11,992 nucleotides of DNA from assembly GCA_943354655.1 (NCBI GenBank), contig CALRCT010000006.1, positions 1-11,992 on the forward strand. The letters are read 5' to 3'. Position numbers and translations under genes: made by a program. This DNA is from an uncultured Candidatus Saccharimonas sp. Lineage in GTDB: Bacteria; Patescibacteriota; Saccharimonadia; Saccharimonadales; SZUA-47. The notes below the pieces were generated by a model. That model made no database searches. It worked only from the letters and a program-made list of their open reading frames with translations, and was not told the origin of the DNA. Below are positions 7,124-10,933 of the stretch, in pieces (the first letter of the stretch is position 1; the number at the start of each line of letters is the position of its first letter).

Positions 7124-8791
7124 CTAGTAGTCAGCGCCCATGCCGCCCATACCAGCGGCTGCCGCTGATTTTGGCTCTGGTACTTCTACTACCAATGCAC
7201 CCATAGTCATGCCTGTTCCAGCAATACTAACCGCATTCTGAATCGCTTCGCGCGTTACGCGCTTAGGATCAATAATTCCTTTAGCTTTTAAGTCTACTAA
7301 CTTAGCTGGATCGTTAACATTAACGCCAAATCCTTGTTTACCTGACTTAACTTGCGGTAACCATTCGTCTGGATTAATTGCAGAGTTTTCCATTAATATA
7401 CGAAAAGGTTGTTCTAGTGCGCGCTTAAGCAAAAACTTGCCGTTACTGTAAGCAACGTTATCTACGCCAACTATTAATTTTTCGTCTTGGACTATAAGGT
7501 CGGCAAGATTAACCATAGTTACGCCACCGCCAGCCACGATTCCTTCGTCTAGTGCGGCTTTAACTGCAGCAACTGCATCGTCTACTCTAAACTTCTTTTC
7601 TTCTATTTCTGTCTCTGTTGCTCCACCTACTTTAATAACTGCAACCTTGCCACCAAGTGATGCGGCACGTTTTACCAAAGGTTCGTTTGCGTAATGTGTG
7701 TCTGGTTTTTTAGAATCAACCTGAGCCAAAATATGCTTAATACGAGACTTAACATCTGCCGCACTTCCTGCGCCTTCTATTATTGTTGTGCTGTCTTTGC
7801 CAACAATAACTTTACGGGCGCGTCCTACTACTTCTAGTCCTACGGTATCAAAAGTCATACCCAAGTCTTCGGTAACGACTGTGGCACCTGTAAGTATTGC
7901 AATATCGTTTAGTACTTCTTTACGTCGGTCGCCAAACTCTGGAGCTTTTACAGCTACAGCGTTAAATACACCTTTTAACTTGTTTAAAATTAGAGCGCCA
8001 AGTGCTTCACCCTCTACATCTTCGGCTATTAAAATAAGATTTTTTTCGCCTTTTGCTGCCAATTTTTCTAGAATTGGTAAAAATTCTTGGATATTGCTAA
8101 GTTTTTTGTCGGTTATAACAATTGCTGGCTTGTCATATACAGCCTGCATTCGCGTACTGTCGGTAACCATGTATGGGCTAACAAAACCTCTGCTAAATGT
8201 AAATCCTTCTACTACTTCGTGTTCTAGATGTAGTCCCTGACCTTCTTCAACGGTGACTACGCCCGATTTACCTACTTTGTCCATCACATCAGCAATTAAT
8301 GCACCAATTTCGGCGTCACCTGCGCTAATAGTTGCAACTTCGGCGATGCGGCTCTTTTTGCCTTCTATGCTTTCGGCCATACCGTTTAGTTTTTTAAGTA
8401 CATCTGTTGCTGCTGCTTCTAGCCCTTTTCTAAGTAGCATTGGGTTATGTCCTGCTGCTATCAGTTTATTTGCTTCGTTTAAAATATGGTACGTCAAAAC
8501 AGTAACGGTAGTAGTACCGTCGCCTGCAACATCGTTCATTTTGCTGGCCGCTTGTTTTATAAGTTCGGCACCTACTTTGTAACCCAAAGTTTCGTCGTCT
8601 ACGTCTGCAATCTCTACGCCTTTTGCTACAGTAACACCGTCATGAGTAACCGTTGGTGAGCCGTAAGTTTTGCTAATAATTACGTTACGTCCCTTTGGTC
8701 CCATTGTAGTTTTAACTGCTTCATACAAAATACGAGCTCCGCCCAATACTCTTCTGCGCGCATCTTCGTCATAAAAAACTTTTTTAGACAT
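7124..8791 (-). CDS. groEL: 60-kDa chaperonin GroEL
   Basis: The protein has 555 residues, a normal GroEL length. GroEL assembles into double rings of seven subunits that fold proteins in an ATP-driven cycle in the cytosol. Landmarks are MGPKGRNV near residue 31, the nucleotide-binding GDGTTT, the apical-domain stretch with VVEGFTFSRGFVSPYM, DDAVAAVKAALDEGIVAGGG with the hydrolytic Asp, and a short GMGGMGADY tail that keeps only a brief GGM-like repeat. The start is MSKKVFYDEDARRRVL, 3 nt after the groES stop, with AAGG about 9 nt upstream. It is co-transcribed with groES under the CIRCE-bearing promoter and ends at the hairpin 7081-7108. The sequence is diverged from proteobacterial GroEL but no key residue seems missing. 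Confidence 0.98.
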   Translation of the reverse strand: MSKKVFYDEDARRRVLGGARILYEAVKTTMGPKGRNVIISKTYGSPTVTHDGVTVAKGVEIADVDDETLGYKVGAELIKQAASKMNDVAGDGTTTVTVLTYHILNEANKLIAAGHNPMLLRKGLEAAATDVLKKLNGMAESIEGKKSRIAEVATISAGDAEIGALIADVMDKVGKSGVVTVEEGQGLHLEHEVVEGFTFSRGFVSPYMVTDSTRMQAVYDKPAIVITDKKLSNIQEFLPILEKLAAKGEKNLILIAEDVEGEALGALILNKLKGVFNAVAVKAPEFGDRRKEVLNDIAILTGATVVTEDLGMTFDTVGLEVVGRARKVIVGKDSTTIIEGAGSAADVKSRIKHILAQVDSKKPDTHYANEPLVKRAASLGGKVAVIKVGGATETEIEEKKFRVDDAVAAVKAALDEGIVAGGGVTMVNLADLIVQDEKLIVGVDNVAYSNGKFLLKRALEQPFRILMENSAINPDEWLPQVKSGKQGFGVNVNDPAKLVDLKAKGIIDPKRVTREAIQNAVSIAGTGMTMGALVVEVPEPKSAAAAGMGGMGADY

Positions 8792-8794
8792 AGT

Positions 8795-9064
8795 TTAAGC
8801 CTTTACCTTTGCATATACGTTTTCTTCTTTTACTAAAATATATTCTGTTGATTCGATTGTTACTTCGGTGTTGCTATATCCGCCGTAAACAACGCGGTCC
8901 CCAACTTTTACGTCTTTAACATCTTTGCCTACAGCTAATACTTTGGCTATTTTTGGTTTGTCGGCGGACTTTTCTGGCAAATACAAACCACTGGCAGTCT
9001 TAGTTTTAACTACTTCTTGCTCTATAACAACATAATCCGCTAGCGGAACTAAAGGTACACTCAT
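8795..9064 (-). CDS. groES: 10-kDa co-chaperonin GroES
   Basis: The protein has 89 residues and forms the heptameric lid that caps GroEL. It has the N-terminal strand VPLADYVVIEQ (the usual PLxDRV with Arg replaced by Tyr), the mobile loop TASGLYLPEKS (about 23-33) that docks on GroEL, a conserved KVLAVGK turn, VGDRVVYGGYSNTEV, and a C-terminal strand YILVKEENVYAKV. The ATG at 9064 follows a strong SD (GGAGG at 9075-9071 on the minus strand, 6-nt spacing). It is the first gene of the chaperonin operon. The leader is about 80 nt and contains a hairpin. Confidence 0.97.
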   Translation of the reverse strand: MSVPLVPLADYVVIEQEVVKTKTASGLYLPEKSADKPKIAKVLAVGKDVKDVKVGDRVVYGGYSNTEVTIESTEYILVKEENVYAKVKA

Positions 9065-9143: not shown

Positions 9144-9170
9144 CTAGCACTCACTATATATGAGTGCCAG
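9144..9170. promoter_or_regulatory. CIRCE operator (HrcA binding site)
   Basis: CTAGCACTC (9144-9152), a 9-nt spacer and GAGTGCCAG (9162-9170) match the CIRCE consensus TTAGCACTC-N9-GAGTGCTAA, with substitutions only at the outer positions. CIRCE is bound by the heat-labile repressor HrcA in front of groESL or dnaK operons. Position, spacing and target gene all fit. hrcA itself is not in the window. Confidence 0.93.
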
Positions 9171-9182
9171 TATAACGGTCAA
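9153..9182 (-). promoter_or_regulatory. groESL promoter overlapping CIRCE
   Basis: On the minus strand TTGACC (9182-9177), an 18-nt spacer and TATAGT (9158-9153) form a vegetative promoter. The -10 box lies in the 9-nt spacer of CIRCE, so bound HrcA would block polymerase. The start site is expected near 9146. Confidence 0.7.
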
Positions 9183-9197
9183 TACCTCTTAAAAACT

Positions 9198-9219
9198 AAA
9201 AAACCGCACTAATATGCGG
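9198..9219 (-). terminator. Rho-independent terminator at the end of the large RNA
   Basis: On the minus strand CCGCA (9219-9215), a 6-nt loop and TGCGG (9208-9204) are followed by TTTTTT (9203-9198) and a further T-rich tract to 9191. It begins 18 nt after the 17-bp closing stem of the putative RNA and 15 nt before the groES -35 box, so it separates the two minus-strand units. Confidence 0.85.
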
Positions 9220-9237
9220 ATAAACAAACGAAGTGAT

Positions 9238-9254
9238 AAATAAGAGAGATTGTA
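9238..9254. repeat. Left arm of the perfect 17-bp inverted repeat
   Basis: AAATAAGAGAGATTGTA here is the exact reverse complement of 9889-9905. In the minus-strand RNA this arm is the 3' strand of the closing helix. No target-site duplication flanks the pair, so a transposon end is not supported. Confidence 0.9.
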
Positions 9255-9832
9255 ATTGAGTGTGAAGGTGGTGCGGGGGTTGCTAATAAGCGATGTTGAT
9301 CGATTTAAATCGTTCTAATCTTTTATTAAACAATCCCCCGCTCCGTGTCGATACTAAAAATAGCATCAACCCTTCCGCATACAGCAATCTGCAGTTCCAT
9401 GAGTGGTATTGAACAACAAAGCAATTTTACTGCATGCCTATTTTCATTATTCCCCCCAAGAGGTAGAAGTTAAAAACAGATTCACCCGCTACGCGATGCT
9501 TCCTCCGTGTGCCCGAACATCTTCTAGGTCAAATTTAGCCAGACTTTCGGCGACACGAACGCGAATTGCGTCTATGTTCCCCCTGCCTTTGGTTGGCGTA
9601 AACAAAACCTCGCATGACAGTCCTTTGTGGACCTTGCGGGCATCCGGCGAGCGCGTCGGTTCGTTGCTTTTAACGAACCTGTTATTCAACTTGGCGCGCT
9701 GTCGTTGCCTTTCATGCCTTTTTGTTCGGGCCGGCTTATCATCTATGTAGCTTTTCAAGGCTACCCCCATTCCTGGATTGAGTGCAACGTTTCACAACGA
9801 GGCAGTCTTATGCATTTGCTCTTGTCTCACGA

Positions 9833-9874
9833 CAGTGCACGCTATTATTAACCGCTTAATAACACCGTGCACTG
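9833..9874 (-). other. Long hairpin near the 5' end of the putative RNA
   Basis: CAGTGCACG (9833-9841) pairs with CGTGCACTG (9866-9874), 9 bp. After a 3x3 internal loop, TTATTAA (9845-9851) pairs with TTAATAA (9856-9862), 7 bp, around a 4-nt loop. It lies 14 nt inside the closing helix. Confidence 0.8.
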
Positions 9875-9888
9875 CCCTAGAGTTTTTA

Positions 9889-9905
9889 TACAATCTCTCT
9901 TATTT
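9889..9905. repeat. Right arm of the perfect 17-bp inverted repeat
   Basis: TACAATCTCTCTTATTT is the exact reverse complement of 9238-9254, 634 nt away. In the minus-strand RNA it is the 5' strand of the closing helix. Confidence 0.9.
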
Positions 9906-9977
9906 GTAAATGTACAGCCATCGCTTGTGCGATGACACAGCGTTTATCTTATTTGACAAACTTGTTAGTAAATGTAC
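9906..9977 (+). repeat. Direct repeat of GTAAATGTAC
   Basis: The 10-mer occurs at 9906-9915 and 9968-9977, 62 nt apart. Each copy contains TACATT on the minus strand, the -10 box of the promoter at 9999-9971 in the distal copy. The proximal copy lacks a good -35. Confidence 0.5.
9919..9934 (-). other. Small hairpin in the 5' leader before the closing helix
   Basis: CATCGC (9919-9924) and GCGATG (9929-9934) form a 6-bp stem with a 4-nt loop. It would be transcribed if the promoter at 9999-9971 is used and is outside the 17-bp closing helix. Confidence 0.5.
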
Positions 9978-9999
9978 TCCTACATATCTTAATTGTCAA
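9971..9999 (-). promoter_or_regulatory. Promoter of the putative large RNA
   Basis: On the minus strand a perfect TTGACA (9999-9994), a 17-nt spacer and TACATT (9976-9971) precede the RNA. The predicted start is near 9964, about 60 nt before the closing helix. The 10-mer holding the -10 box recurs at 9906-9915, where a start would fall at the helix itself. Confidence 0.7.
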
Positions 10000-10072: not shown

Positions 10073-10933
10073 ATGTCTTTAATAAACAAACATGTGCTAA
10101 TGAGCGGAACTGATTATTTTGACGATGGCTATGCCATTAACGCTCATATGGACGACAAAATACCGGTTGACCGCGTAAAAGCAGCCCAAGAACATGCCAA
10201 AATAGCAGAATATATGCAAAGTGCAGGCATAGCGGTAAGCAAAATTGCAGCACCAAAAAACTGCCAGGACGGAGTATATACTGCAAACTGGGCGCTAATT
10301 CATGGCAATACTGCCGTTATGGCAAACTTACCAAATATACGCGAATCCGAAGAATCTTATGCCAAAGATGTTTTAAAAAATCTAGGCTATAACACAATTA
10401 AATTACCCAAAGAAATTCATTTTAGCGGACAAGGCGACGCTTTGCCATGTGGAAAATATTTGTTTGTAGGAACAAATTATCGAACCAGCCCAGAAGCGCA
10501 TCAACTGCTTGAACAATACCTTAAATTAGACGTAATTGGACTACAAACGGTTCCACAAACCAACAGCAACGGCAGCCTAGTTATTAACAAAGTTACCGGC
10601 TGGCCAGACAGTTTTTTTTACGACCTAGATCTTGCTTTGGCAGTAATTAACCAAAATACAATTGCTTGGTGTCCTGACGCCTTTACTGCAGAATCATGCA
10701 AAAAAATAAGAGACCTAAAAGAACTAGTTAAAATAGAGGTTAGTTTAGACGAAGCTATGAACGGCTTTGCTTGCAACCTAGTGTCTACCGGAAAATCTGT
10801 AATTATGAGCAACCATGCGCCTATTCTAAAAAAGGCGCTGATTGACCTAGGATTAACAGTTTATTGTCCTGATGTAACCGAACTTTTAAAGGGTGGCGGT
10901 TTTATTAGATGTACTACTCTTACACTAAATTAG
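10073..10933 (+). CDS. DDAH/amidinotransferase-fold protein with catalytic His replaced
   Basis: The chosen ATG gives 286 residues, the size of dimethylarginine dimethylaminohydrolase-like proteins of the guanidino-modifying (GME) superfamily. Family landmarks are DYFDDGYAINAHMD (14-27), the substrate-side DGVYTANWAL (66-75), FSGQGDAL (117-124), and KGGGFIRCTTL (273-283) with Cys280 as the expected nucleophile. The usual FYHLD before the second half reads FFYDLD here, so the His partner of the catalytic pair is Asp184. If real, this would weaken or change hydrolysis of arginine-like substrates. A TTG at 10028 is in frame, but the promoter overlaps that extension and homology begins after the ATG. 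It has no signal peptide. It is convergent with the murE-linked gene, with 7 nt between stops. Confidence 0.82.
   Translation: MSLINKHVLMSGTDYFDDGYAINAHMDDKIPVDRVKAAQEHAKIAEYMQSAGIAVSKIAAPKNCQDGVYTANWALIHGNTAVMANLPNIRESEESYAKDVLKNLGYNTIKLPKEIHFSGQGDALPCGKYLFVGTNYRTSPEAHQLLEQYLKLDVIGLQTVPQTNSNGSLVINKVTGWPDSFFYDLDLALAVINQNTIAWCPDAFTAESCKKIRDLKELVKIEVSLDEAMNGFACNLVSTGKSVIMSNHAPILKKALIDLGLTVYCPDVTELLKGGGFIRCTTLTLN

What the first reader, a model, noticed from the sequence alone, without database searches (positions are those of the whole stretch)
9191..9999. Candidate large structured RNA of about 0.7 kb next to groESL
A protein-free stretch has a near-consensus minus-strand promoter (TTGACA-17-TACATT), a perfect 17-bp inverted repeat joining its ends, many internal helices and a clean rho-independent terminator. 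I see no motifs of tmRNA, RNase P RNA, SRP, 6S or group I/II introns. The size and closed ends resemble the ornate large bacterial RNAs (OLE, GOLLD and ROOL are examples of the type), but I cannot assign it to one of them.
Basis: partly seen in the sequence, partly recalled or inferred. Interest (0 to 1): 0.87.

Follow-up and report, generated by a model that had tools for sequence, protein, structure and literature searches.

The report
Closed-ended messenger RNA beside groESL
In an ultra-small bacterium of the Saccharibacteria, whose cultured relatives live on the surface of Actinobacteria, the stretch next to the chaperone genes appears to encode a folded RNA whose two ends clamp together around a small protein gene, and related genomes carry the same kind of clamp around unrelated proteins written in codons that resemble those of actinobacteria, which hints at genes aimed at the host cell.

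Summary
In detail: a promoter-like site, a perfect 17-bp inverted repeat, an RNA fold far below shuffles (z -9.5; -7.9 in a second set) and a terminator; no Rfam hit. It is not protein-free. In nine other Saccharibacteria genomes the slot beside groES holds gene units of the same build: 5' clamp arm (core GAGAU), 5' hairpin, small ORF, GC-rich 3' hairpin, 3' clamp arm, terminator (3' side unseen in two). The clamp covaries (11 of 17 pairs change on both sides, 0 of 500 shuffles). The ORFs are unrelated; one is a BldC-family regulator, an actinobacterial protein. All 12 clamped ORFs are richer in third-position GC than their own genes (by 0.13-0.44); 22 same-strand slot ORFs without a known clamp average -0.06, though some opposite-strand ones are GC-rich too. 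I read the window as a divergent member of an undescribed family of closed-ended mRNAs carrying hypervariable small proteins, possibly host-directed. Against: the family's 5' profile does not recognise the window copy; its ORF has no homologue and a weak coding signature; nothing shows transcription or delivery. The OLE/GOLLD/ROOL analogy fails; the structured transcript stands.

The parts
9971..9999 (-). promoter-like site TTGACA-17-TACATT, start of transcript near 9964
   Evidence: start position inferred
9941..9949 (-). outer helix P1, 5' strand (pairs with 9222-9230)
   Evidence: pair probability 0.80; not looked for systematically in relatives
9917..9936 (-). leader hairpin GUCAUCGC/GCGAUGGC
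   Evidence: p 0.97
9889..9905 (-). 5' arm of the closing helix (clamp), AAAUAAGAGAGAUUGUA, holds the GAGAU core
9826..9882 (-). 5' hairpin directly inside the clamp
   Evidence: p 0.86-1.00; a hairpin stands in the same position in the relatives
9489..9758 (-). small basic ORF, 89 codons from TTG 9758 (or 93 from ATG 9770), net charge +10, GC3 0.55 against 0.31 in its own groES/groEL/DDAH codons
9438..9479 (-). hairpin carrying CTCTTGGGGGGAAT (9449-9462), similar motif in the G018 element (CTCTATGGGGGGAAT)
9347..9437 (-). two further hairpins (9377-9437, 9347-9370)
   Evidence: no counterpart seen in G018 by my reading
9273..9341 (-). GC-rich 3' hairpin GCGGGGG...CCCCCGC
   Evidence: p 1.00 for its base; counterpart in the relatives read by eye
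9238..9254 (-). 3' arm of the closing helix
9222..9230 (-). outer helix P1, 3' strand
9204..9219 (-). intrinsic terminator-like hairpin, 18 nt after the clamp
9147..9167 (-). GCACTC-N9-GAGTGC (CIRCE-like operator; name recalled) of the separate groESL promoter
   Evidence: read; promoter-like site 9182..9153
8795..9064 (-). groES (groEL follows at 7124-8791)
10073..10933 (+). DDAH-like (dimethylargininase family) gene, the other border of the slot
   Evidence: below NCBIfam cut-offs; Pfam PF19420 above cut-off

Best explanation
The region is a gene on the minus strand whose product is a structured mRNA of about 760 nt. A 17-bp helix between its 5' and 3' UTRs closes the transcript end to end around a small basic protein gene. 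It is a divergent, putative member of a Saccharibacterial family that occupies the slot between groES and a DDAH-like gene. In this family the UTR frame (clamp, 5' hairpin, GC-rich 3' hairpin, terminator) is kept, while the enclosed protein is hypervariable and written in codons unlike the rest of the genome and close to those of actinobacteria. Shown by computation: architecture, position, covariation of the clamp, codon contrast, coding signature in the relatives. Inferred: the clamp protects the message from exonucleases and may gate translation, and the proteins act in or on the actinobacterial host, as the BldC-family member suggests. Not shown: transcription, translation of the window ORF, secretion or delivery.
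For: Same slot and strand in 9 other genomes, 7 of them with both clamp arms seen. Clamp: 11 of 17 pairs changed on both sides, 0/500 shuffles reach this, 83% of cells paired against 29-42% when slid. Of its 8 rows, 6 (the window, G015, G017, G018, G036, UBA75) were noticed through perfect inverted repeats; G083 and G146 were found by a 5'-side model that cannot see the 3' arm, and both close (16 and 12 bp). The 5 non-training hits of that model among 278 genomes lie next to groES and/or DDAH. GC3 of 12 clamped ORFs exceeds their own groES/groEL/DDAH codons by 0.13-0.44; 22 same-strand slot ORFs without a known clamp average -0.06, range -0.18 to 0.15. The G083 ORF ranks first of 767 for GC3; none of 287 window-genome ORFs of 120 aa or more reaches the window ORF's 0.55. 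GC3>GC1>GC2 in 8 of 10 ORFs; in G146 GC1 is slightly above GC3, and the window is weak. BldC family in G146. Codon log-likelihood is best under two actinobacterial plasmid tables. Window and G018 share CTCT[A]TGGGGGGAAT, found in 4 of 273 genomes (motif picked after the fact).
Against: The 5' model R3 does not recognise 9820-9921 even with filters off, so window membership rests on position, architecture, clamp core, one shared motif and codon contrast. The window ORF has no homologue but itself, weak periodicity (GC1/2/3 0.56/0.45/0.55), a codon score below all 13 window genes (-0.28 against 0.20-0.45) and no clear Shine-Dalgarno at a good distance. AlphaFold on the single sequence gives no confident fold (pLDDT 58). 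R3 finds nothing in the ten other family-f1 genomes, and the five f1 slots that were seen hold no perfect repeat of 12 bp. GC-rich codons are not exclusive to clamped ORFs: of 18 opposite-strand slot ORFs without a known clamp 5 exceed their own genes by more than 0.15 (up to 0.35). Host-like codons fit a GC3-tilted own table nearly as well (G015 -1.528 against -1.518 and -1.512). Two of the ten genomes (G048 contig end, G049 masked stretch) show only the 5' side. No expression data.
Confidence: 0.6

Rival explanations
1. A noncoding large structured RNA; the ORF inside the window copy is incidental.
For: Window ORF without homologues and with weak periodicity; in the window the ORF region is more stable than synonymous shuffles (z -3.6, 0 of 60); fold z -9.5.
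Against: Relatives with the same frame carry coding ORFs: GC3 far above GC2, usually a Shine-Dalgarno, a BldC protein. For 7 of 10 ORFs the coding part is no more folded than synonymous shuffles.
Confidence: 0.15
2. A cassette site that takes up genes from actinobacteria: the foreign codons are a relic of recent transfer and the genes act inside the epibiont itself.
For: BldC-family gene; codon tables nearest actinobacteria; mutually unrelated ORFs in one fixed slot (best of 66 pairwise comparisons E 0.013); some GC3-rich opposite-strand slot ORFs without a known clamp.
Against: 10 of the 11 ORFs scanned match no family above cut-off, so donors are not seen (the G049 ORF was not scanned); the UTR frame stays with the changing ORFs; same-strand slot ORFs without a known clamp are not GC-rich.
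Confidence: 0.3
3. The GC-rich codons are selected only because the whole transcript must be strongly folded.
For: 3' UTRs are GC-rich in nine of ten (0.54-0.64; window 0.40); window and L112x ORFs are more folded than all 60 synonymous shuffles, L121x than all but one.
Against: Seven of ten ORFs are not more folded than synonymous shuffles, and as a group the ten do not differ from 29 control stretches (p 0.40); 5' UTRs are less GC-rich (0.44-0.56); the excess sits in codon position 3.
Confidence: 0.15
4. A small transposable element (MITE) whose terminal inverted repeats are the 17-bp arms.
For: A perfect 17-bp inverted repeat bounds the region.
Against: Arms lie inside promoter and terminator; no target-site duplication seen by eye; no second copy in the own incomplete genome and one R3 match in G083; arms keep a GAGAU core and covary.
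Confidence: 0.03

Closest known systems
icaR mRNA of Staphylococcus aureus (5'-3' UTR pairing, PMC3868564; abstract and outline read)
   Same: One bacterial mRNA whose 3' UTR pairs with its own 5' UTR.
   Different: There a short UCCCCUG motif pairs with the Shine-Dalgarno region and makes an RNase III substrate. Here 12-17 bp pair, the 5' arm beginning 85-187 nt before the start codon, in a family with unrelated ORFs.
OLE, GOLLD and ROOL RNAs (PMC12286853; search listing and passages read)
   Different: No Rfam match; ORFs enclosed; beside groESL in a Saccharibacterium, whereas GOLLD and ROOL are described from phages and prophages, often near tRNA islands.
BldC-family regulators (NCBIfam NF033787; PDB 6ama and 6amk, deposited as putative DNA-binding protein, recalled as BldC)
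   Same: The G146 clamped ORF matches NF033787 at 92.1 bits (cut-off 77) and 6ama at E 3e-18.
   Different: Found inside a Saccharibacterial clamped unit, with an extra C-terminal half; the window ORF matches no family.

Membership tests
Closed-ended groES-slot mRNA family (defined here) | Lies between groES and the DDAH-like gene, on the groES strand, before a separate groES promoter | tested here: met
Closed-ended groES-slot mRNA family (defined here) | Perfect 5'-3' helix of at least 12 bp with a GAGAU core, terminator within about 30 nt | tested here: met
Closed-ended groES-slot mRNA family (defined here) | 5' hairpin directly inside the clamp | tested here: met
Closed-ended groES-slot mRNA family (defined here) | Sequence and structure of the 5' arm plus hairpin match model R3 | tested here: not met
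   hence only a divergent, putative member
Closed-ended groES-slot mRNA family (defined here) | Enclosed ORF with third-position GC well above its own genes | tested here: met
Closed-ended groES-slot mRNA family (defined here) | Enclosed ORF is protein-coding | tested here: inconclusive
   for the window; clear in relatives
OLE / GOLLD / ROOL and all other Rfam families | Covariance-model score at or above the gathering cut-off | tested here: not met
icaR-type translational control | 3' UTR pairs with the Shine-Dalgarno region | tested here: not met
   the 5' arm begins 85-187 nt before the start codon in ten elements, 147 nt in the window; other pairings of the 3' UTR were not excluded
MITE | Several copies per genome, target-site duplication | tested here: inconclusive
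   one copy in the own genome, which is 66% complete; duplication looked for by eye only
Host-directed effector | Protein or RNA reaches the actinobacterial host | not testable with these tools
   needs co-culture experiments

The most novel reading that the evidence does not exclude
The mRNA itself is the cargo: the epibiont makes an end-clamped, exonuclease-resistant message written in its host's codons, passes it into the actinobacterial host, and the host's ribosomes make the small proteins, among them a BldC-like regulator that would interfere with host development.
Probability: 0.1. Interest if true: 0.98.

Novelty: categorically new. Interest (0 to 1): 0.82.

Why it matters
A conserved RNA frame that keeps its own ends paired while the protein inside is exchanged is, as far as the searches here show, not described. 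What was searched: Rfam and open PubMed Central papers (judged mostly from listings); the preprint library is not held and most subscription papers are missing. If the proteins or messages act in the actinobacterial host, these loci give a list of candidate effectors for an epibiotic life style whose mechanism is open, and a marker (clamp plus codon contrast) to find them in uncultured genomes.

Tried and rejected
DNA similarity of the element: none but self in 60 genomes; in 294 genomes 25 had a match at E<=0.05, apart from self short scattered pieces of 18-35 nt (19 fetched loci re-examined); phages and plasmids none. Those searches also missed the true relatives, so they are weak evidence of absence. 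Single-sequence models of two window domains: R1 only self in 197, 379 and 39 genomes, R2 only self in 197 and 39; over 60 held sources R1 self only, R2 six weak short hits at E 0.058 to 9.3, rejected. Protein-level searches of the 93-aa ORF and the opposite-strand ORF: self only, or none; four sub-threshold rows at E 0.02-0.3 were not followed. Viral-contig patterns: no motif hit had a closing repeat like the element's; the matches, a capped list, were not examined further. G008 slot: thought to be a homologue, rejected, it holds an apparently frameshifted protein gene. Integron cassette considered because GTTGAGA resembles a core site from memory; not searched for. Six other long inverted repeats in the window's genome do not flank GC3-rich ORFs. 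TTA absence (0 of 101 leucines in 12 ORFs) is confounded with high GC3 and is not used as proof. Start codons of the clamped ORFs were chosen by eye (for UBA75, G015 and L112x not the longest possible ORF).

Full report
What is there. The window is from a Saccharibacteria genome: relatives carrying the same genes are mostly named Candidatus Saccharibacteria in public records. Between groES (8795-9064, minus) and a dimethylargininase-like gene (10073-10933, plus) lie 1008 bases. Promoter-like sites are no more frequent than in shuffles (3 found, 3.1 expected), so the promoter carries weight only by its position. The transcript folds at z -9.5 (20 shuffles) or -7.9 (40 shuffles), with many helices at pair probability above 0.95. 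The whole plus strand is nearly as extreme (z -7.7), but the 3' domain and the 5' hairpin domain fold much better on minus. Rfam has nothing above cut-off in this region.

First attempts to find relatives by sequence failed. BLAST in 60 and 294 genomes, single-sequence covariance models (R1 in 197, 379 and 39 genomes, R2 in 197 and 39), and protein searches of the 93-codon ORF gave only the window itself or weak pieces.

Synteny opened the case. groES was found in 105 of 118 genomes and the dimethylargininase-like gene in 26 of 60. In many they stand in the same divergent arrangement. A scan of genome contigs gave 44 loci. With those these gave 35 groES-to-DDAH gaps, 33 distinct, the window's included. 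Most hold different small genes. Fold scans in 300-nt windows of the window's gap and 25 gaps (first 1500 bases; shorter than 400 left out) drew my eye to L105 (G018, z -13.3 in one window). That most extreme window turned out to lie mainly over hairpins just after the element; windows over the element itself scored -7.1 to -1.3. Other gaps also have windows of -5 to -7.6. Reading L105 showed a perfect 17-bp 5'-3' helix, a 5' hairpin, a small ORF, a motif CTCTATGGGGGGAAT (window: CTCTTGGGGGGAAT) and a terminator. An exact inverted-repeat search over all held loci (67 rows, most of them taken as chance or copies of the same place) then showed clamps with the same GAGAT core in the slots of L089 (G017), L125 (HKST-UBA75, the same sequence as L418 of G273), L109 (G036) and L118 (G015). 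In the 33 gaps, 6 hold a perfect repeat of 13 bp or more, the window included; two more hold one of 12 bp.

A covariance model of the 5' arm and 5' hairpin was built from three of these (R3). Among 278 genomes of the order it hit 8: the three training genomes and G048, G049, G083, G146, G273. All five new ones lie beside groES and/or the dimethylargininase-like gene. It missed G015 and the window there; G015 scores 24.4 bits when searched directly. R3 cannot see the 3' arm. Of the new hits, G083 and G146 have complete sequence and were not chosen by their arms; both have the 3' arm, 16 bp and 12 bp. G048 stops at a contig end and G049 has a masked stretch, so their 3' side is unseen. With the window and G015 this makes 10 genomes in 8 families.

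Covariation. Eight clamps aligned on the GAGAU core give 17 pairs: 5 never vary, 11 have changes on both sides, 1 departs only by unpaired cells; 83% of cells pair. 0 of 500 shuffles reach the paired percentage, the double changes or the covariation score (5 of 500 reach the number of further pair types); sliding the partner drops pairing to 29-42%. Six of the eight rows were noticed because their arms match, which favours pairing; G083 and G146 are free of that bias.

The anatomy in each complete slot element, 5' to 3': a 5' arm; a hairpin (GGAAGC...GCUUCC type in several); usually a Shine-Dalgarno read by eye (AAGGAG, GAGGAG, GGGAGG and similar); an ORF of 54-153 codons; a GC-rich hairpin; a pyrimidine-rich stretch; the 3' arm; some 15-30 nt later a terminator; then the groESL promoter. 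Two further elements of a similar build, but with unrelated arms, lie beyond the dimethylargininase-like gene in L112 and L121 (called L112x, L121x); I see no terminator after the 3' arm of L121x. They are counted with the ORFs below but not in the covariation.

The ORFs are protein-coding in the relatives. GC3 is 0.69-0.94 and GC2 0.40-0.53 in nine of ten examined, the window being the weak one (0.56/0.45/0.55). The 12 ORFs show no similarity to each other (best of 66 pairs E 0.013). G146 encodes a BldC-family protein: NCBIfam NF033787 92.1 bits against a cut-off of 77, PDB 6ama/6amk (recalled as BldC structures); on plasmids 19 of 21 records with a match are actinobacterial, and the three names with an organism among the 120 listed relatives are actinobacterial BldC (P0054, P0072, P0117). 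Of 11 ORFs scanned only this one matches a family above cut-off (G049 not scanned).

Codon contrast. In all 12 clamped ORFs GC3 exceeds that of the same locus's groES/groEL/DDAH codons (those found in the locus), by 0.13 to 0.44. Twenty-two same-strand slot ORFs of 100 codons or more without a known clamp average -0.06, range -0.18 to +0.15, so the two groups barely overlap. Not so clean: of 18 opposite-strand slot ORFs without a known clamp in the same call, 5 exceed +0.15 (up to +0.35); they may be further members or may mean that the slot itself takes GC-rich genes. In the whole G083 genome the clamped ORF has the highest GC3 of 767 non-overlapping ORFs of at least 120 aa (0.83; mean 0.543, sd 0.069). 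In 325 kb of the window's genome no ORF of 287 reaches 0.55 (mean 0.285, sd 0.040, maximum 0.50). In a 241-kb contig of G036 0 of 209 reach 0.94 (the next, 0.85, is an opposite-strand slot ORF); in a 386-kb contig of G015 1 of 332 reaches 0.86. These comparison ORFs are longer than the 54-89-codon clamped ORFs of those three. The pooled codons of ten ORFs (1116) score -1.523 and -1.522 bits under two actinobacterial plasmid tables, -1.556 under an alphaproteobacterial one of similar GC3 and -1.70 to -2.50 under four own-genome tables. After all tables are tilted to the same GC3 the actinobacterial ones remain best (-1.518, -1.512; Sinorhizobium -1.555; own -1.528 to -1.727). This is a leaning, not a proof. 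Local structure does not explain it: seven of ten ORFs are no more stable than synonymous shuffles, and the ten as a group do not differ from 29 control stretches (p 0.40); window, L112x and L121x are more stable (z -3.6, -5.2, -1.9).

How it may work. Shown by computation: a transcript-shaped unit with paired ends, kept by covariation, holding exchangeable GC3-rich ORFs at one chromosomal site. Inferred: the clamp shields both ends from exonucleases and perhaps controls loading of ribosomes; the proteins are aimed at the actinobacterial host. That cultured Saccharibacteria live on Actinobacteria and that one of them has an essential type IV secretion-like apparatus is stated in PMC10633639 (search listing and passages); hosts also in PMC10746230 (passages). 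icaR mRNA is the nearest known mechanism (PMC3868564, abstract and outline), but there the pairing covers the Shine-Dalgarno; here the 5' arm begins 85-187 nt before the start codon.

Where the window stands. It meets position, strand, clamp with GAGAU core, 5' hairpin, 3' GC-rich hairpin, terminator spacing and codon contrast, and shares a rare motif with G018 (4 of 273 genomes hold it, 2 of them these elements; the control pattern also has 2 matches; the motif was chosen after comparing the two). It fails the R3 profile, has an outer helix and hairpins not seen in G018, and its ORF is not proven. I file it as a divergent, putative member.

Literature. No paper in the held library holds Saccharibacteria with 'structured noncoding RNA' or with BldC, nor Patescibacteria with 'structured RNA'. 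Seven papers hold Saccharibacteria and 'untranslated region'; judging from titles and abstracts, and one passage of PMC11665869, none describes this. Preprint servers were not searched.

Noticed in passing
L108, L109, L120, L121, L140 (groES-DDAH slot, DDAH strand): Five GC3-rich ORFs (0.73-0.92) on the opposite strand of the slot; in L121 two 8-bp helices span the ORF, in the others no spanning helix of 6 bp or more was predicted. They may be further members with other clamps.
   Followed up: partly
L112:5724-6347 and L121:5671-6354: Elements of a similar build with unrelated 15- and 14-bp arms lie outside the slot, beyond the DDAH-like gene.
   Followed up: partly
9899-9915 and 9961-9977: A 17-nt direct repeat (88%) lies at the -10 region of the promoter and again at the 5' arm of the clamp.
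   Followed up: no
L011:780-1372 (G008 slot): The G008 slot holds a protein gene apparently split by a frameshift.
   Followed up: no
L082:711-1379 (G002): A REP-type (Y1) transposase-like ORF, named by eye, lies beside the DDAH-like gene.
   Followed up: no
G015 contig C20 33474-34577 and 328396-328863 (loci L485, L500): Two other ORFs with very high GC3 (0.87, 0.81) away from the slot; possible further foreign-codon genes.
   Followed up: no
G000 contig C32 3530-4332 (locus L535 is C33, L534 is C32; position from the 33rd entry of the list): A second perfect 17-bp inverted repeat in the window's genome flanks a sigma-factor-like ORF (named by eye) with ordinary GC3. The contig of 5412 bases is C33.
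   Followed up: partly
L241, L250, L263 (viral contigs): Three near-identical viral stretches carry CTCTTGGGGGGAAT closed by a 12-bp stem (10 Watson-Crick pairs), like the hairpin of the element, but without the closing repeat.
   Followed up: no
1409-1498: Serine tRNA gene (anticodon GGA), the only Rfam match above cut-off in the window.
   Followed up: no
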